A stretch of DNA of 64,000 bases, taken from Streptomyces profundus (lineage in GTDB: Bacteria > Actinomycetota > Actinomycetes > Streptomycetales > Streptomycetaceae). This document shows positions 3,573 through 39,314 of the stretch, one piece after another. Numbering within the stretch: the first letter of the stretch is position 1; each line of letters opens with the position of its first letter. The position numbers were made by a program, and so were the translations under genes. The notes beneath the pieces are model-generated. The model did not search any database, was not told where the DNA came from, and saw only the letters and a list, made by a program, of their open reading frames with translations. Where the stretch lies: assembly GCF_020740535.1 (NCBI RefSeq), contig NZ_CP082362.1, positions 3,222,501-3,286,500 on the forward strand, read 5' to 3'.

Positions 3573-3989
3573 TCAGAGCGGCCGGTTCTGCTGCTCGATG
3601 TACTGCTTCACGATGCTGAGTGGTGCGCCGCCGGCGGAACCGGCGAAGTACGAGCCGGACCAGAGTCGTTGTGCTCGCCAGTAGTGGCGCACGAGGTCGG
3701 GGAACTCCTGGCGGAGGCGGCGCGAGGACACGCCTTTGAGGGAGTTCACCAGCCTGGACACGGCGACCTTGGGCGGGAAGTTCACGAGGAGGTGGACGTG
3801 GTTGGCCTCGCCGTTGAACTCGACCAGCTCGGCCTCGAAGTCCTCGCACACGGCGCGCATGATCTCCTCACACCGCGTCAGGTGTCGGTCGGCGAAGACG
3901 GAGTGCCGGTACTTCGTCACGAAAACCAAGTGGACATGCATGCGGAAGACACAGTGACGACCTGTTCGAATGTTCTCATCGATACCCAT
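3573..3989 (-). CDS. tnpA: TnpA Y1 (HUH) transposase
   Basis: Single-strand transposase of the IS200/IS605 family, 138 residues, the usual length. The HUH metal site is HVH at residues 64-66 (NHVHLLV) and the catalytic tyrosine is Y130 in VKQY. I take the start at 3989 (MGIDENI), because upstream methionines would run into tnpB and add a non-family extension. Diverges from tnpB; the two start codons are about 25 bp apart, so they share a short promoter region. All key residues are present, so the element may be active. Confidence 0.92.
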   Translation of the reverse strand: MGIDENIRTGRHCVFRMHVHLVFVTKYRHSVFADRHLTRCEEIMRAVCEDFEAELVEFNGEANHVHLLVNFPPKVAVSRLVNSLKGVSSRRLRQEFPDLVRHYWRAQRLWSGSYFAGSAGGAPLSIVKQYIEQQNRPL

Positions 3990-4014
3990 AAACCAACTGT
4001 GTATCATGATCCCC

Positions 4015-5223
4015 ATGCAGCTTCGGTACAGCTTCCGCCTGTACCCGAGCACCGGTCAGCGCAGCGCGTTAGCGAGGGCGTTCGGGTGCGCGCGGGTGGT
4101 CTACAACGACGCGCTCCGCGCTCGCAAGACCGCCCGCAGCGAAGGCATGCCGTTCCCGAAGACCGGTGACCTGTCGAAGTCGCTGATCACCGAGGCCAAG
4201 AACACCCCGGAACGGGCCTGGCTCAGCGACGTGTCGGCGGTCGTCCTCCAGCAGTCCCTCCGCGACCTGGACACCGCGTACCGGAACTTCCTCGACGGGC
4301 TGGCGGGCAAGCGCCCGCGCATGGGCGCACCCCGGTACAAGTCCCGCAAGGACACGCGACATTCGGTCCGGTTCACCGCGAACGCCCGCTGGTCGATCAC
4401 GACCGGCGGGAAGCTGCGCCTGCCGAAGATCGGCGACGTCAAGGTGAAGTGGTCGCGGACGCTGCCCTCCGTGCCCTCGACGGTGACGGTGGTCAAGGAC
4501 AGCGCGTGCGGGTACTTCGCGAGCTTCGTCGTGGAGACCGGTCCGCAGGAAGTCCTTCCCGAGGTCGTGCCCGAGCTGGGCATCGATCTCGGGCTCGGGC
4601 ACTTCGCGGTCCTCTCCGACGGGACGAAGGTCGACAGCCCGCGCTTCCTGCGCCGGGCCGAAAAGCGCCTGAAGAAGGCACAGCGGAACCTCTCCCGCAA
4701 GGAGAAGGGCTCCAGCAACCGGAACAAGGCCCGGCTGAAGGTCGCCCGCGCTCACGCGAAGGTGGCCGACGCGCGCCGCGAGTTCCACCACCAGCTCTCC
4801 ACGAAGCTGATCCGCGAGAACCATGCGGTCGCCGTGGAGGACCTGGCGGTGAAGGGACTCGCCCGCACGCGCCTGGCCAAGTCCGTCCACGACGCCGGAT
4901 GGTCGGCGTTCGTGAACATGCTGGAGTACAAGGCCGCACGGTACGGGCGCACCTTCGTGAAGATCGGCCGCTTCGAGCCCACATCTCAGGTGTGCTCGCA
5001 GTGCGGCGTGAAGGACGGTCCAAAGCCGCTGCACGTCCGCGTGTGGACGTGTGGAGCGTGCGGGGCTGTCCTGGACCGGGACATCAACGCGGCGGTCAAC
5101 GTCGCCAAGGCGGCCGGACTGGCCGTGACAGCCTGTGGAGCGCAGGTAAGACCGGGACCCGTCCCGGCACCGCGCAGCGAAGCAGGAACCCACCCGACAC
5201 CACAGCCTCTGACGGCGCGGTAG
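4015..5223 (+). CDS. tnpB: TnpB RNA-guided endonuclease (RuvC-like)
   Basis: 402 residues from the ATG at 4015 (MQLRYSF); an in-frame ATG lies three codons upstream. The RuvC residues are present: D191 in GIDLG, E275 in AVEDLAV and D356 in DRDINAA, nearly the spacing of ISDra2 TnpB. A CxxC..CxxC zinc ribbon (C327, C330, C346, C349) sits between the last two. Family members use a right-end-derived omega RNA to cut DNA beside a TAM and so help the element persist. The reading frame is intact. Confidence 0.93.
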   Translation: MQLRYSFRLYPSTGQRSALARAFGCARVVYNDALRARKTARSEGMPFPKTGDLSKSLITEAKNTPERAWLSDVSAVVLQQSLRDLDTAYRNFLDGLAGKRPRMGAPRYKSRKDTRHSVRFTANARWSITTGGKLRLPKIGDVKVKWSRTLPSVPSTVTVVKDSACGYFASFVVETGPQEVLPEVVPELGIDLGLGHFAVLSDGTKVDSPRFLRRAEKRLKKAQRNLSRKEKGSSNRNKARLKVARAHAKVADARREFHHQLSTKLIRENHAVAVEDLAVKGLARTRLAKSVHDAGWSAFVNMLEYKAARYGRTFVKIGRFEPTSQVCSQCGVKDGPKPLHVRVWTCGACGAVLDRDINAAVNVAKAAGLAVTACGAQVRPGPVPAPRSEAGTHPTPQPLTAR

Positions 5224-24231: not shown

Positions 24232-25601
24232 CCCCGGCTTCAGCCGGGGGTGGAAACGAGGCTCCTGCGGAGCAGGGCAGGGGAAGCCGGTTCGCCGTCA
24301 GGGCGGACCGGCGTCTACCAGCAACGACCGGCAGTTCACCACTAATTGATCCCTTATCATGTGAACTGTGAAGACCATGCACGTGAAGCGGGCGTTGAAG
24401 TACCGCTGCTATCCGACGGATGCGCAGGCGGCGGAGCTGTCGCGCACCTTCGGATGCGTGCGGAAGGTCTACAACCTGGCCCTTGCCGCGCGTACGGAAG
24501 CGTGGACGCGGCAGGAGCGGGTGAACTACCACCAGACCTCGGCCATGCTGACGGCCTGGAAGAGGACCGAGGAGTTCGCCTACCTCAACGACGTCTCCTC
24601 CGTCCCGCTCCAGCAGGCGCTTCGGCACCTCCAGGGAGCGTTCACCAACTTCTTCGACAAGCGAGCCAAGTACCCGCGTTTCAAGTCGCGGAAGCGATCG
24701 CGGAAGTCGGCGGAGTACACCACCTCCGCGTTCCGGCTCCGGGACGGCCGGCTGACCTTGGCGAAGATGGCGGAGCCGCTGGGCATCGTGTGGTCCCGCC
24801 CGCTCCCCGAAGGTGCGTCGCCGTCCACGGTGACCGTCTCCCAGGACGCCGCCGGACGCTGGCACGTGTCCCTGCTGGTCCAGGACCCGACCATTCAGCC
24901 GCTCCCGGCCACCGACACGGCCGTCGGTATCGATGTCGGACTCGACCACCTGCTGACCCTCTCCACCGGCGAGAAGATCACCAACCCGAGGCACGAGCGT
25001 GCGGATCGTGCCCGTCTCGCGAAGGCCCAGCGGCGGCTGGCCCGTAAGGCCGCGGGGGATGGGGCCAACCGCGCCAAGGCCCGCCGGAAGGTCGCCCGGG
25101 TGTATGCCCGGATCGCTGACCGTAGGCGGGACCACCTGCACCAGCTGACCACTCGACTCGTGCGTGAACACCAAACGCTCGTGATCGAGGACCTCGCGGT
25201 TCGGAACATGGTGCGAAACCACTCTCTGGCCCGCGCCATCTCGGACGCGGCGTGGTCGGAGTTCCGGAGCATGCTGGAGTACAAGGCGGCCTGGTACGGG
25301 CGGGAAGTGATCGCGGTCGACCGTTTCTTCCCCTCCTCCAAGCTGTGCTCGACCTGCGGCGCCGTACGAAGTGGGATGCCGCTGCACGTCCGGGTCTGGA
25401 CGTGCGGCGGTTGCGGGGCGACCCATGACCGGGACGTGAACGCGGCGCGCAACCTGCTGGCCGTCGGGCTGACGGTGTCTGTCTGTGGAGCTGGTGTAAG
25501 ACCTCAACGGAGTCCTCCGGGCGGGCAGTCGGCGACGAAGCAGAAAACCCCACGGCGCGAGCCGTAGGAATCCCCCTCGTTCACGAGGGGGAGGAAGTCA
25601 A
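24232..25601. mobile_element. tnpB-only IS200/IS605-family element
   Basis: Left hairpin at 24232-24249 and right hairpin at 25572-25591, both with loop TTCA, and right end GAGGAAGTCAA ending at 25601. These ends match the style of the IS605-type element at 3.5-5.3 kb, but there is no tnpA. It would need TnpA in trans; the intact copy in this window might recognise the similar ends. The exact left boundary is uncertain by some bases. Confidence 0.8.
24368..25567 (+). CDS. tnpB: TnpB RNA-guided endonuclease (second copy)
   Basis: 399 residues from a GTG at 24368; the ATG at 24377 is an alternative and neither has a clear ribosome site. RuvC residues D189 (GIDVG), E274 (VIEDLAV) and D356 (DRDVNAA) and the zinc-ribbon cysteines C327, C330, C346, C349 are intact. 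Related to but clearly different from the TnpB at 4.0 kb, so the two elements are not recent copies. The predicted guide begins at 25602 (CGAGCTCACTGCG). Confidence 0.92.
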   Translation: MKTMHVKRALKYRCYPTDAQAAELSRTFGCVRKVYNLALAARTEAWTRQERVNYHQTSAMLTAWKRTEEFAYLNDVSSVPLQQALRHLQGAFTNFFDKRAKYPRFKSRKRSRKSAEYTTSAFRLRDGRLTLAKMAEPLGIVWSRPLPEGASPSTVTVSQDAAGRWHVSLLVQDPTIQPLPATDTAVGIDVGLDHLLTLSTGEKITNPRHERADRARLAKAQRRLARKAAGDGANRAKARRKVARVYARIADRRRDHLHQLTTRLVREHQTLVIEDLAVRNMVRNHSLARAISDAAWSEFRSMLEYKAAWYGREVIAVDRFFPSSKLCSTCGAVRSGMPLHVRVWTCGGCGATHDRDVNAARNLLAVGLTVSVCGAGVRPQRSPPGGQSATKQKTPRREP

Positions 25602-28940: not shown

Positions 28941-31205
<2,265 letters not shown>

Positions 31206-35467: not shown

Positions 35468-35501
35468 CGATCCGATGACCACGGAATCGATGATCGGATC
35501 G
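35468..35501. promoter_or_regulatory. Perfect 9-bp inverted repeat between divergent operons
   Basis: Arms CGATCCGAT (35468-35476) and ATCGGATCG (35493-35501) around a 16-bp spacer that holds a third small palindrome, ATCGAT (35486-35491). It lies in the 328-bp gap between the SDR-photolyase operon and the chorismate lyase-pobA-ubiA operon and is a good candidate operator for one or both. The regulator is not visible nearby. Confidence 0.5.
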
Positions 35502-35649
35502 CGTTTCCCCGTTCGAGTGAAAACAACGCCCCCGGTTCCCCAAGCGGAACGAATCCTCGCTCGTGTGTTCGCCCCGGGTCCTGGGCCGTGACCTGACGGG
35601 CGTGGCGACCGTTGGCCCCTTCGGATGCCCACGGTGAGGAGTGATCAGG

Positions 35650-36246
35650 ATGTCCATGCCGACGCCGCCGGGTGTCTTCCCGTTGGTGTTCCCCCTCGCC
35701 TTCCCGCTGGAGCGGGCAGTGGCGGCGGCCCGCGAACGCCCCCTCGCGCGCACCAGGGGGTTCGCCTCCCCCCTCACCCGGATGCTGCTCAGCAGCGAGG
35801 GCCAGACCACCACCTTGTTGGAATCACTGTCGGGAGAATCGTTGCGGCTACGGTTCCTCGCCCAGTTACGGGTCACCGCCCGACAGACCGGCGAGGGCGT
35901 CGCCGCGCTGCTGCGCACCGGCGAGGACGACGGTGTCCTGGTCCGCCACACCGCCACGGTCAGGGCCGGCGACGAGCCGCTCTCCGTGAACCACGTGGTC
36001 GCGCGGCTGGATCTGGCGCCCGCCATCGAGCACTGCCTCACCAGCACCTCGATACCGCTGGGCCGCGCGCTGACCGAGGCCGGCACGGGCCACCGCCGCA
36101 CCCTGCTCGACACCGGTCGGCGCCGCTGGGAACAGGACGGCGACCGCCGCACGGCCTGCTACAAGACCTATCTGGTCTGGCATGGCGACGAGCCGCTGGT
36201 GCTGATCAACGAGCTGTTCAACCCCTTGTTCGTCCCGGCCGGCTGA
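35650..36246 (+). CDS. Chorismate--pyruvate lyase-like protein (Rv2949c type)
   Basis: 198 residues from the ATG at 35650; GAGGAG ends 9 bp before it, whereas the GTG at 35641 directly abuts it. Pattern similarity to Rv2949c-type 4-hydroxybenzoate synthases: SSEGQTTTLLESL, LRLRFLAQLRVT, LVRHTATVRAG, SIPLGRAL and YKTYLVWHGDEPLVLINELF follow that family's order and spacing. Expected reaction: chorismate to 4-hydroxybenzoate plus pyruvate. Located 13 bp before a 4-hydroxybenzoate hydroxylase-like gene, which supports the call. Sequence is divergent, so function is inferred. Confidence 0.7.
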   Translation: MSMPTPPGVFPLVFPLAFPLERAVAAARERPLARTRGFASPLTRMLLSSEGQTTTLLESLSGESLRLRFLAQLRVTARQTGEGVAALLRTGEDDGVLVRHTATVRAGDEPLSVNHVVARLDLAPAIEHCLTSTSIPLGRALTEAGTGHRRTLLDTGRRRWEQDGDRRTACYKTYLVWHGDEPLVLINELFNPLFVPAG

Positions 36247-36259
36247 AGGAACCCCAAGG

Positions 36260-37459
36260 ATGCGACGACTGCGTACCGAGGTCGGCATCGTCGGCGCCGG
36301 CCCCGCCGGGCTCGCGTTGGCCAATGTGCTGGCCCGCGCCGGCGTCGACTGCCTGGTGGTGGAGCGAAGCTCAAGGGAGCGGGTGGAGACGCGTCAGCGC
36401 GCCGGTCTGCTGGAGCACCGCACCGTGCGGTGGCTGCGCGGACAGGGGCTCGCCGACGGGCTGTTGGCCGACGCGACGCGCCACGGCTGGTGCGACTTCC
36501 GCTGTCTGGGACATACCGTTCGAGTGGACTACGGAGCGTACTCCGGCGGGCGTGAACACTGGGTCTACCCGCAGCAGCGCCTGGTTTCGGACCTCATCGG
36601 GACCCTGGAGAAGGCGGGCCCCCCACCCCTGTTCTCCCATACCGTGCGGGCGGTGACGGACGTCGCCTCCCGACGTCCCCGGCTCAAGTGTGAAGGTATG
36701 GAGATCGAATGCGACTACGTGGTGGGCTGCGACGGCTTTCGCGGCGTCTCGCGTGCCGCGCTGCCCGCCACCGGGCACCGCGTTCACAACCGGCGCTATC
36801 CGTACGACTGGTTGACGGTGCTGGCCGAGGTGGACCGGCCGGCCGAGGGAGTGGTGTACGCGGTACACCCCGACGGCTTCGCCGGGATGATGCCGCGTGG
36901 CCCGCGGATCAGCCGCTTCTACCTCCAGTGCCCGCCGGACGACTCGCCGGACGCCTGGCCGGCGGGGCGGATCGTCAAGGAGCTGCGCGGCCGGTTGGCC
37001 GGCGCGCTGCCGACCATCGGCGCGCTGCCCGAGGTGCGGATGCTGCGGATGCGCAGCAGCGTCACCGAGCCGCTGAGCCACGGCCGGCTGCTGCTCGCGG
37101 GCGACGCGGCGCATGTGCTGACGCCGTCGGGCGCCAAGGGCATGAACCTGGCCATCGCGGACGCCGCGCACCTCGGCACCGCCCTGGTCAACCGCCTCAG
37201 GCACGGCGACGGTCGGGCGCTCGCCTCCTACAGCTCGGCGCGAGGGGCCGACGCCCGGCGGGTGTTGGGCTTCTCCGAGTGGCTGCTGGGACTGCTGCAC
37301 CTGCCGAACGAGACGGGCGCCGGCGGCCCGCGGGCGGAGCTGAGGGAGCGGTTGGCCGCGATACGCCGACTGGCCGAGCCAGGCCCGGAGTCGGCCGCGT
37401 TCGCCCATCGCTATGTCGGCTCCGGCGCGGAGGATGGGCCCGATGACCCTCCTGGCTGA
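36260..37459 (+). CDS. pobA: 4-Hydroxybenzoate 3-monooxygenase-like flavoprotein
   Basis: 399 residues. Class A FAD monooxygenase: GxGxxG in VGIVGAGPAGLALAN, the PobA mark RQRAGLLEHRTVRWL, the DG motif CDYVVGCDGFRGVSR and the FAD-binding GDAAHVLTPSGAKGMNLAIADA. Expected reaction: 4-hydroxybenzoate to 3,4-dihydroxybenzoate with NAD(P)H and oxygen. Its position between a chorismate lyase-like gene and a UbiA prenyltransferase, not beside beta-ketoadipate genes, argues for biosynthesis rather than catabolism. Confidence 0.85.
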   Translation: MRRLRTEVGIVGAGPAGLALANVLARAGVDCLVVERSSRERVETRQRAGLLEHRTVRWLRGQGLADGLLADATRHGWCDFRCLGHTVRVDYGAYSGGREHWVYPQQRLVSDLIGTLEKAGPPPLFSHTVRAVTDVASRRPRLKCEGMEIECDYVVGCDGFRGVSRAALPATGHRVHNRRYPYDWLTVLAEVDRPAEGVVYAVHPDGFAGMMPRGPRISRFYLQCPPDDSPDAWPAGRIVKELRGRLAGALPTIGALPEVRMLRMRSSVTEPLSHGRLLLAGDAAHVLTPSGAKGMNLAIADAAHLGTALVNRLRHGDGRALASYSSARGADARRVLGFSEWLLGLLHLPNETGAGGPRAELRERLAAIRRLAEPGPESAAFAHRYVGSGAEDGPDDPPG

Positions 37460-38369
37460 GAACGTCCGTGCGCTGTACGGATTCTCCCGGGGCACCCAGG
37501 CGACGCTCAGCGTGGCGCAGCCGCTGCTCGGCCTGCTGCTCGCCGGCGGCCTGCCCCCGGGCCGGCTGCTGCTGTGCGCGCTGGCCTCGTTCGCCGCGTT
37601 CTTCGCGGTGTTCGCGGTGAACGACCTCATCGACGCCCGGATCGACCAGCAGCGGTTCGCCCATCTCAGGGACTACGACGGCTTCGACATCGACAGCGCC
37701 GGGGTGCGTCATCCGCTGGCCCAGGGCCGGCTCAGCCTGGCCATGGCCGCCTCCTGGGTCGCCTCGCTCGGCGCCGCCGCGCTGGTGCTCGCGGCGCTGA
37801 TCAGCTGGGTCTGCGTGGTGCTCTTCGTCGCGGCGGCGCTGCTTGAGGCGCTCTACTGCAAGCTCGCCCGGGTCACCCCCTACAAGGCGCTGCTCACCGG
37901 CGTGATGGTCGCGCTGGGCGGCTGCGTCGGCTGGTTCGCGGTGACCAACGCGATCGACCAGCCGGTGCTCTGGCTGTTCGCGATCTGGCTGGCGGCCTGG
38001 GAGATCGGGGGCCGCAACATCGTCAACGACCTGGCGGACGTCGAGGAGGACATCCATCTCGGGGTGCGCACCATCCCGGTGGTCTACGGCCAGCGGGTGA
38101 GCGTGGTGCTGGCCTTCGGCGCCCTGCTGGTCGCCTTCCTCGCCAGCGTGGGGATGATGGTCTGCGCGTTCCCCGCCTTCGGGCTCCTCGGCGTCGCCGG
38201 CACGGTCCTGGCCGGCGGCTACGCGCTGGTCACCCCCGGCTTCCGGCTGCTGCGCGACCCCCACCCCAGGACCGCGCTCGCGGTGTTCAACCGCGCCTCC
38301 CTCTATCCGGTGGTGCTCCTCCTGATGGCGCTGGTGGGGCTGGCCGTCCGTCAGCTCTCGGGGCTCTGA
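37443..38369 (+). CDS. UbiA-family aromatic prenyltransferase
   Basis: 308 residues from the ATG at 37443, placed 9 bp after GGAGG and overlapping the pobA end by 17 bp, so coupled. Eight or nine membrane helices. First Asp-rich motif NDLIDARID (N60, D61, D64, D68), second NDLADVEED (N195, D196, D199, D203), both complete, which bind Mg and the prenyl diphosphate. Transfers a prenyl chain to an aromatic or similar acceptor in the membrane; the neighbouring genes suggest a (di)hydroxybenzoate. Distant from MenA or protohaem farnesyltransferase as far as I can judge. Confidence 0.88.
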   Translation: MTLLAENVRALYGFSRGTQATLSVAQPLLGLLLAGGLPPGRLLLCALASFAAFFAVFAVNDLIDARIDQQRFAHLRDYDGFDIDSAGVRHPLAQGRLSLAMAASWVASLGAAALVLAALISWVCVVLFVAAALLEALYCKLARVTPYKALLTGVMVALGGCVGWFAVTNAIDQPVLWLFAIWLAAWEIGGRNIVNDLADVEEDIHLGVRTIPVVYGQRVSVVLAFGALLVAFLASVGMMVCAFPAFGLLGVAGTVLAGGYALVTPGFRLLRDPHPRTALAVFNRASLYPVVLLLMALVGLAVRQLSGL

Positions 38370-38390: not shown

Positions 38391-39314
38391 TCAACCGAGC
38401 AGGGTGGCCACCAGGGCGAGGACGGGAACGGCGAGCGCCGTGGTGAGCAGGACGGCCTCCCGGGCCAGCCGGAGGCCGACGCCGTAGTGGGAGGCGTAGG
38501 TGAACACGTTCTGCGCCGTGGGCAGGGCGACGGTCACCACCACGATCAGCTGGGCCTCCCGGTCGAGCCCGAAGGCCAGCGCCAACAGCCAGGCCAGCAG
38601 CGGCGCGACCACGGACTTGAGGGCGACCGACAGCAGTACCTGGGCGCGGTCGGGGCCGCGCCCGGGCAGCTCGCTGCCGTGCAGGGAGATCCCGAAGGCC
38701 AGCAGCACGGCGGGGACGGCCATGTTGCCCAGCAGGGTGATCGGTTCCAGAAGCGTGGTGGGCGGATTCCATCCCGTTCCGGCCACCGCGACGCCGCCCA
38801 GCGCTCCCAACACAATGGGATTCCGAAACGGCGTGGTCAGCCGACGCCAGACGCCGCTCGGCTCCGCGCCGCGCTCCCCCGTCAGGTCGAGCAGCGTCAA
38901 CACCACCGGGGTGACCAACAGCTGCTGGAAGAGCAGCACGGGCGCCACCAGCGAGATGTCCTCCAACACATAGACGGCCACCGGGATGCCCAGATTGGCG
39001 ATGTTCACATAGCCGGCGCAGAGCGCCCCGATCACGGCGGGCCCCACGCCCCAGCGGCGCACCAGGGCTACGACCACATAGGCGCCGGCGGCCAGCACCA
39101 TGGCGAGCGCGGCGACCAGCAGGCGGGGCGAGAACAGCGCCGACAGATCGGCCTCGGAGACGGTCACGAAGAGCAGCGCGGGGGTCGCCACCTGGAAGGC
39201 GAGCCGCGTCAGCACCTCGCGTCCGTTCACCCCGAGCGAGCCGCGCCGCCCCAGCAGGTAGCCGACGCCGATGAGGGACGCGATGATCACGAATCCGGTC
39301 AGCACCCCACGCAT
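38391..39314 (-). CDS. AEC (auxin efflux carrier) family transporter
   Basis: 307 residues, ten predicted membrane helices in two bundles, with the family glycine/asparagine motif GYVNIANLGIPVAVYV in the middle and LPTAQNVFTYASHYG near the end. These carriers export or exchange small organic anions. It is convergent with the ubiA operon, 21 bp from its end; a link to that pathway is possible but unproven. Confidence 0.88.
   Translation of the reverse strand: MRGVLTGFVIIASLIGVGYLLGRRGSLGVNGREVLTRLAFQVATPALLFVTVSEADLSALFSPRLLVAALAMVLAAGAYVVVALVRRWGVGPAVIGALCAGYVNIANLGIPVAVYVLEDISLVAPVLLFQQLLVTPVVLTLLDLTGERGAEPSGVWRRLTTPFRNPIVLGALGGVAVAGTGWNPPTTLLEPITLLGNMAVPAVLLAFGISLHGSELPGRGPDRAQVLLSVALKSVVAPLLAWLLALAFGLDREAQLIVVVTVALPTAQNVFTYASHYGVGLRLAREAVLLTTALAVPVLALVATLLG

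What the first reader, a model, noticed from the sequence alone, without database searches (positions are those of the whole stretch)
35468..38369. Chorismate lyase-like, PobA-like and UbiA genes in one operon: possible route to a prenylated (di)hydroxybenzoate
Three tightly packed genes (13-bp gap, then a 17-bp overlap) could convert chorismate to 4-hydroxybenzoate, hydroxylate it at C3 and prenylate it in the membrane. This is the ubiquinone head-group logic, yet Streptomyces uses menaquinone. The catabolic partners of PobA (protocatechuate dioxygenase, pca genes) are absent. All catalytic motifs of PobA and UbiA appear intact. A small lipid, pigment or antioxidant is a plausible product; the neighbouring light-repair operon hints at a stress role.
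Basis: partly seen in the sequence, partly recalled or inferred. Interest (0 to 1): 0.75.

Follow-up and report, generated by a model that had tools for sequence, protein, structure and literature searches.

The report
Streptomyces prenylated-dihydroxybenzoate biosynthesis cassette
Three neighbouring genes probably let this soil bacterium build a small ring compound from a common metabolite and attach an oily tail, resembling the opening chemistry of coenzyme Q with differently derived enzymes; some relatives carry a longer five-gene version, and no product is known.

Summary

The PobA pocket is remodelled (Ser212 to Met, Leu210 to Gly, Leu199 to Val) in a separate subfamily. The UbiA is not of ubiquinone type by sequence. 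The light-repair link is not supported. Hydroxylation may come before or after prenylation; the predicted product is the same. Against: three genomes have CL and PobA without this UbiA, and distant UbiA relatives lie beside neither. A new variant of xiamenmycin/ubiquinone-like logic; no activity or product is shown.

The parts
35650..36246 (+). CL: 198-aa chorismate-lyase-like protein (distant Rv2949c-like / DUF98 type)
36260..37459 (+). Cassette-type PobA: 399-aa group A flavin monooxygenase of the PHBH family with a remodelled substrate pocket (M211 = Ser212, G209 = Leu210, V198 = Leu199, C78 = Ile75, S290 = Thr294)
   Evidence: NF006091 360.1 bits (cut-off 351), TIGR02360 264 (cut-off 538.7); pocket columns and one-branch monophyly 100/100; 0 of 120 listed database hits, window included, have Ser/Thr at 212.
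37443..38369 (+). UbiA-superfamily membrane prenyltransferase, 308 aa, both Asp motifs present (NDLIDARID, NDLADVEED); in a family of its own, apart from UbiA, MqnP and CtaB
   Evidence: PF01040 111.6 bits, cut-off 34.2; no NCBIfam cut-off reached; tree and motifs.

Best explanation
The trio is a small meroterpenoid-type biosynthetic operon. CL cleaves chorismate to 4-hydroxybenzoate and pyruvate. The membrane UbiA-family enzyme attaches an isoprenoid tail ortho to the phenol. The cassette-type PobA adds a hydroxyl at the other ortho position, before or after the tail. Either order gives a 3-prenyl-4,5-dihydroxybenzoate, a membrane-anchored prenyl catechol acid. In relatives with the five-gene form, a linked isoprenyl diphosphate synthase probably supplies the tail and a linked SAM methyltransferase probably methylates the product, presumably on the new hydroxyl. 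Members of the window's clade lack that methyltransferase, so their product should stay a free catechol and use one of the genome's general prenyl synthases. Shown by computation: the genes, fold, motif conservation, co-occurrence and pocket changes. Inferred: every reaction, the order of steps, tail length, product and role.
For: CL fold and residues. XimC, a chorismate lyase acting with a UbiA-superfamily prenyltransferase in Streptomyces, makes 4HB in vitro (PMC4053376, passages). Co-occurrence: 10 of 10 genomes found through UbiA (window included) hold CL and cassette-type PobA, 9 contiguous. In S. avicenniae the pairs CL-PobA and UbiA-MT lie on different contigs; in G157 about 31 kb apart; sp. 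8K308 keeps its cassette-type PobA on another contig. Linked IDS and MT: IDS-MT-CL-PobA-UbiA in L053, L054, L055; CL-PobA-UbiA-MT with an IDS on the other strand in L015; MT-CL-PobA-UbiA in L025; IDS-CL-UbiA-MT in L019. No PcaGH pair in the genome, and MqnP is a separate gene.
Against: Three genomes (Saccharopolyspora sp. NFXS83, S. hoynatensis, S. niveiscabiei) have CL and cassette-type PobA but no UbiA of this family at E <= 1e-10, so CL-PobA can act without it. Ten non-Streptomyces Actinomycetota genomes have a distant relative of this UbiA (36-43%); in the nine stretches read around them no CL, PobA or cassette MT was found, so the wider family is not tied to this route. Ser212 is lost in the cassette PobAs; a Ser212Ala mutant of XaPobA had little activity on PCA and 4HB (PMC10770758, passages). 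The UbiA's acceptor rests on gene context. No IDS or MT is beside the window trio, and S. durbertensis (G436) has the trio without that MT. No metabolite evidence.
Confidence: 0.7

Rival explanations
1. Hydroxylation after prenylation (ubiquinone order): UbiA prenylates 4HB first, and the remodelled PobA hydroxylates 3-prenyl-4-hydroxybenzoate at C5, doing the job of Coq6 with a PHBH scaffold. This is a variant of the best explanation, not an alternative product.
For: Of the 120 listed hits (window included) all have Val/Ile at 199 and Cys/Ser at 75, and none has Thr at 294. T294A and L199V added to Y385F raise hydroxylation of PCA, a 3-substituted substrate, 10- and 30-fold over wild-type P. 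aeruginosa PobA, and residues 72, 75, 199 and 201 enclose the 3-OH of bound PCA in XaPobA (PMC10770758, passages). In L019 CL, UbiA and MT are together and PobA is elsewhere.
Against: Three genomes with the same PobA subfamily lack this UbiA, and CL-PobA stay adjacent in two of the three genomes where the cassette is split. Tyr385, changed in those engineered PobAs, is kept in 117 of 120.
Confidence: 0.4
2. CL and PobA make protocatechuate for another use (siderophore, starter unit, exported acid) and the UbiA acts on an unrelated acceptor; the operon is only a convenience.
For: CL-PobA pairs without this UbiA exist in 3 genomes. Distant UbiA relatives lie in stretches without CL or PobA. A Mem_trans-family transporter gene (38391-39314, -) adjoins the locus in the clade.
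Against: Within Streptomyces this UbiA was not seen without CL and cassette PobA: 10 of 10 genomes found through UbiA. UbiA overlaps PobA or MT by 4-23 bp in 14 of 17 loci with UbiA, starts by my own caller.
Confidence: 0.15
3. CL is a ligand-binding protein of the same fold (UTRA-like) and not an enzyme.
Against: No DNA-binding domain found; Arg and Glu equivalent to UbiC R76/E155 are invariant in 20 of 20 rows; PF01947 is the only Pfam family touched by all 20; adjacency to PobA and UbiA.
Confidence: 0.05

Closest known systems
Xiamenmycin cluster (ximA-E, Streptomyces xiamenensis 318; PMC4053376)
   Same: A chorismate lyase without identity to UbiC (XimC) and a UbiA-superfamily prenyltransferase (XimB) make a prenylated 4HB in Streptomyces (passages).
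   Different: XimB is 34% identical to E. coli UbiA (paper); the window UbiA aligns over only 27 residues with it. No epoxidase, cyclase or amide synthetase beside the trio; PobA instead. Xim sequences themselves were not compared. S. xiamenensis also encodes relatives of this trio (P0015, P0178, P0037).
Ubiquinone head-group pathway (UbiC/UbiA; eukaryotic Coq2-Coq6-Coq3, recalled)
   Same: Chorismate to 4HB, prenylation, ortho-hydroxylation and, in the five-gene form, a methyltransferase.
   Different: The UbiA and PobA do not reach the ubiquinone equivalog models (TIGR01474, TIGR01984 UbiH) and the CL hits no NCBIfam model; the hydroxylase is PHBH-type; the genome has an MqnP for menaquinone.
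p-Hydroxybenzoate hydroxylase (PobA/PHBH), incl. the PCA 5-hydroxylase XaPobA (8JQO-8JQQ)
   Same: Same family; FAD motif and Tyr201, Arg214, Tyr222, Pro293 and Tyr385 kept in the window protein; nearest solved structures by sequence are 8jqq and 8jqo.
   Different: Ser212 replaced by Met, Leu210 by Gly, Ile75 by Cys; separate group from the canonical-scoring PHBHs of Streptomyces and relatives; biosynthetic gene neighbours.

Membership tests
Rv2949c-like chorismate lyase (PF01947) | Pfam gathering score | tested here: not met
   18 bits against 22 for the window protein, E 0.0029; 20 of 20 rows of A1 (window included) hit it at E up to 1, best 5.2e-05. So it is filed as working like one, not as a member by the curated cut-off.
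Rv2949c-like chorismate lyase (PF01947) | chorismate lyase fold | tested here: met
Rv2949c-like chorismate lyase (PF01947) | Arg and Glu equivalent to UbiC R76/E155 | tested here: met
   Invariant in 20 of 20 rows. That these are the catalytic residues of UbiC is recalled.
Rv2949c-like chorismate lyase (PF01947) | release of 4HB from chorismate | not testable with these tools
   needs an assay
p-hydroxybenzoate hydroxylase (TIGR02360 equivalog) | equivalog cut-off | tested here: not met
   264 bits against 538.7; the broader subfamily NF006091 is met, 360.1 against 351.
p-hydroxybenzoate hydroxylase (TIGR02360 equivalog) | Ser212 (or Thr) binding the carboxylate; 97% Ser, 3% Thr in the PHBHs aligned in PMC6315137 (passages) | tested here: not met
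   Met in the window; Met 18 / Val 2 in 20 other cassette rows; Met 115, Val 4, Ala 1 of 120 hits. Five of 10 other PobA-like rows outside the cassette group also lack Ser there.
p-hydroxybenzoate hydroxylase (TIGR02360 equivalog) | Tyr201, Arg214, Tyr222, Pro293 | tested here: met
   All present in the window and in 20 of 20 other cassette rows. Among the 120 wider hits Tyr201 is His in 1 and Tyr222 is His in 6.
4HB polyprenyltransferase UbiA (TIGR01474) | equivalog cut-off | tested here: not met
   48.2 bits against 275.45; 18.5% over 27 residues to E. coli UbiA, E 0.09.
UbiA superfamily (PF01040) | gathering score and two Asp-rich motifs | tested here: met
   111.6 bits against 34.2; motifs aligned.
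Xiamenmycin-type cluster | XimD epoxidase, XimE cyclase and XimA amide synthetase beside CL and UbiA | tested here: not met
   The genes either side of the trio are a divergent SDR-DUF2867 gene and a convergent Mem_trans gene. Not tested by direct comparison with Xim sequences.
Protocatechuate catabolism (pca) | paired PcaG/PcaH dioxygenase genes in the genome | tested here: not met
   One PF00775 hit in the whole genome, a single protein with a signal-peptide-like start.

The most novel reading that the evidence does not exclude
Actinobacteria have rebuilt the Coq2-Coq6-Coq3 stretch of ubiquinone biosynthesis from non-orthologous parts: a DUF98-type lyase, a PHBH-derived hydroxylase whose pocket has been reshaped to act on a prenylated benzoate, a separate UbiA family and an unrelated methyltransferase. 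The result is a membrane prenyl-catechol (window clade) or prenyl-vanillate (five-gene form) redox lipid in menaquinone-using organisms.
Probability: 0.25. Interest if true: 0.8.

Novelty: new variant of a known kind. Interest (0 to 1): 0.58.

Why it matters
It points to an undescribed family of prenylated benzoate lipids in Streptomyces, and possibly Amycolatopsis, with a compact cassette ready for heterologous expression. It also names a PobA subfamily without Ser212, a residue that the PHBHs aligned in PMC6315137 share as Ser or Thr, and asks whether a PHBH scaffold has evolved to act on a lipid-tailed substrate. Both questions can be answered with simple assays in laboratory strains.

Tried and rejected
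Light-repair link: the SDR-DUF2867 gene and/or the photolyase lies left of the trio or of CL-PobA in all nine clade loci (L007-L014, L016), but in none of L015, L053, L054 or L055. L019, L024 and L025 also show none, but the contigs or stretches held there are short on the upstream side (the L019 IDS starts at base 240; L024 and L025 are 3.9 and 5.5 kb). So it is neighbourhood, not function.

Menaquinone prenyltransferase: rejected, because MqnP is a separate gene.

Cassette methyltransferase moved elsewhere in the window genome: rejected; no match at E <= 1e-15 in G000 or in eight clade genomes G427-G433 and G435 (4 of the 17 genomes in that call have one). A single-sequence search of G000 gave only partial matches, best E 1.1e-10 over 99 residues.

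An orthologue of the cassette prenyl synthase in the window genome: none of the five PF00348 proteins stands out (27.9-38.1% to the L053 and L015 proteins, 32.4-42.4% to L019; short fragments left out).

hhalign of the CL profile against E. coli UbiC in global mode gave no usable alignment (E 0.92); residue equivalence rests on MAFFT plus the fold match. Plain Foldseek did not list UbiC among its 50 rows shown; the VIA second look did.

Uniqueness of the Ser212 loss: not claimed. In one search five of 10 PobA-like rows outside the cassette group also lack Ser212 and five have Gly at 210. The tree joins the window genome's second PobA (L146) to the cassette group at 97/84 but flags long branches; the cassette group itself is one branch at 100/100. 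flags long branches among the outside UbiA proteins too.

Published description of the cassette: not found in PubMed Central open-licence searches. This library omits most subscription journals, so absence there is weak.

Rows dropped: three of 30 canonical-scoring PobA loci failed my motif filter (27 used; their catabolic role is assumed, not tested); eight duplicate loci of the same genomes were removed. One search listed 120 of 327 hits and only those 120 were tested; one search listed 120 of 146. L021 and L026 are cut off 41 and 371 bases after the last gene seen, so partners there could be missed; a whole-genome search of the L021 genome found no such UbiA.
Full report
OBSERVATION. The three genes are real and tightly packed: CL 35650-36246, PobA 36260-37459, UbiA 37443-38369, with a 13-bp gap and a 17-bp overlap. 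All three look under purifying selection. They score as coding in my own codon caller, but they were among its nine training genes. The window lies in a 7.65-Mb single-contig genome.

SECOND GENE. It belongs to the PHBH family (NF006091 360.1 bits, cut-off 351) but falls far short of the PHBH equivalog (264 against 538.7). Relatives in the cassettes form one side of a single branch, support 100/100, apart from 27 canonical-scoring PHBHs of Streptomyces and relatives and 10 other PobA-like rows (21 cassette rows with the window). Residues of the flavin and phenol machinery are kept in the window protein (Arg44, Gln102, Tyr201, Pro293, Lys297, Asn300, Tyr385), as are Arg214 and Tyr222. The rest of the pocket is not. 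In the 20 other cassette rows Ser212 is Met (18) or Val (2), Leu210 is Gly (18) or Ala (2), Leu199 is Val (18) or Ile (2), Ile75 is Cys (20) and Thr294 is Ser (18) or Cys (2). The 27 canonical ones have Ser, Leu, Leu, Ile (25) or Val (2), and Thr there. The other 10 are mixed: five lack Ser212 and five have Gly at 210, so these changes are not unique to the cassettes. Over the best 120 of 327 database hits (window included) none has Ser or Thr at 212 and all 120 have Val or Ile at 199. In the PHBHs aligned in PMC6315137 Ser212 is 97% Ser and 3% Thr (passages), and a Ser212Ala mutant of XaPobA had little activity on PCA and 4HB (PMC10770758, passages). In engineered P. aeruginosa PobA, T294A or L199V on top of Y385F raise hydroxylation of PCA 10- and 30-fold, and residues 72, 75, 199 and 201 enclose the 3-OH of bound PCA in XaPobA (passages). 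The changes therefore fit a substrate with a C3 substituent, but do not prove it.

THIRD GENE. A UbiA-superfamily protein (PF01040 111.6 bits) with both Asp motifs, but in a family of its own. A 33-row group including distant Actinomycetota and Chloroflexota sequences is held together at 96/99, apart from E. coli UbiA and six of the window genome's own UbiA-superfamily proteins, among them CtaB, MqnP and an SCO3242-type one (long branches outside the group). It is rare: 10 of 392 Streptomyces genomes at E <= 1e-30 and 12 of 396 Actinomycetota genomes at E <= 1e-40, the window genome counted in both.

CONSERVATION AS A UNIT. Of 33 loci found through CL, 11 have CL-PobA-UbiA together, four have CL-PobA without UbiA beside it (L021 is cut off 41 bases later), one has CL-UbiA without PobA, and 17 show no close partner at this threshold; three of these have only a 28% monooxygenase and L026 is cut off 371 bases past CL. 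Searching from UbiA alone is the less biased test: all 10 genomes (window included) also hold CL and cassette-type PobA, nine contiguously, and G157 with CL-PobA about 31 kb from MT-UbiA (four of the nine are tied to L008-L011 by matching contig coordinates). For comparison, CL homologues of any kind occur in 6 of 61 genomes searched, the window genome included. Several of the 10 are close kin, so they are not 10 independent cases. Two more split genomes agree. S. avicenniae keeps CL-PobA at the clade's usual place while UbiA-MT lies on another contig. Sp. 8K308 has IDS-CL-UbiA-MT on one contig and its PobA on another. Against this, three genomes have CL and cassette PobA without this UbiA, and nine stretches around distant UbiA relatives in other Actinomycetota show no CL, PobA or cassette MT.

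THE LONGER CASSETTE. L053, L054 and L055 read IDS-MT-CL-PobA-UbiA on one strand, with 4-bp overlaps at some joints. L015 reads CL-PobA-UbiA-MT with an IDS on the other strand, L025 MT-CL-PobA-UbiA, L019 IDS-CL-UbiA-MT. The three IDS proteins scanned are polyprenyl synthases (PF00348), and the MT scanned (L053) is a SAM methyltransferase (PF13649), best NCBIfam hit 62.1 bits against a cut-off of 243. This is the strongest evidence for a prenylated product. The window genome and eight clade genomes have no such MT at E <= 1e-15, nor has S. durbertensis, which has the trio, so their product should not be methylated by it.

HOW IT PROBABLY WORKS. Chorismate gives 4HB (CL). 4HB is hydroxylated and prenylated in either order to 3-prenyl-4,5-dihydroxybenzoate. 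For hydroxylation first: CL-PobA pairs without UbiA and CL-PobA adjacency in two of three split genomes. For prenylation first: the pocket changes, and L019. I put the first slightly ahead. In the five-gene form the methyltransferase would plausibly give the 3-prenyl-4-hydroxy-5-methoxy acid, which I recall as an intermediate of eukaryotic ubiquinone synthesis. No activity, product, tail length or role is shown.

KNOWN SYSTEMS. Xiamenmycin is the nearest characterised case I found (XimC makes 4HB in vitro, XimB prenylates it; PMC4053376, passages), but the window trio has a different UbiA family, a PobA and no xim tailoring genes beside it. My searches of open-licence PubMed Central papers found no description of this cassette; subscription journals are largely missing there.

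VERDICT. New variant of a known kind, interest 0.58.

Noticed in passing
L146 8590-9771 (-) (window genome, C1 about 7.2586 Mb): A second, distant PobA-family gene (39% to the window PobA) sits among genes that read like pyridine-carboxylate catabolism (dioxygenase, maleate-isomerase-like, isochorismatase-like; my reading of the N-termini, no HMM test).
   Followed up: no
L149, L151, L152, L153, L154, L156: Around distant relatives of this UbiA in other Actinomycetota, five of nine stretches (L149, L151-L154) have a UbiE/MenG-like methyltransferase next to UbiA, and four (L149, L152, L153, L156) a gene that reads like a U32 peptidase (the family of UbiU/UbiV, recalled). This may be an undescribed quinone locus. 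Labels are from my reading, not HMM-tested.
   Followed up: partly
window 28941-31163 (-): 740-aa two-domain terpene synthase, best NCBIfam hit 'family 2 encapsulin cargo terpene cyclase' at 1185 bits, just under its cut-off of 1200; geosmin-synthase-like size (recalled).
   Followed up: no
window 24368-25567 (+) and L146 5366-6571 (+): Two copies of a TnpB-like protein with near-identical starts in this genome; another TnpA-like/TnpB-like pair at window 3573-5223. Names from my reading only.
   Followed up: no
L056 9012-10505 and L057 7467-9707: CL-type domains in much longer frames (497 and 746 aa by my caller), next to frames whose N-termini read like an AMP-dependent ligase and, in L056, a 29% PobA-like monooxygenase: perhaps another use of 4HB in the order.
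   Followed up: no
L012, L013, L014: A regulator gene (RpiR-type HTH plus SIS domain by Pfam in L014; 78% and 76% relatives in L012 and L013) lies divergently upstream of CL in some clade members but not in the window.
   Followed up: partly
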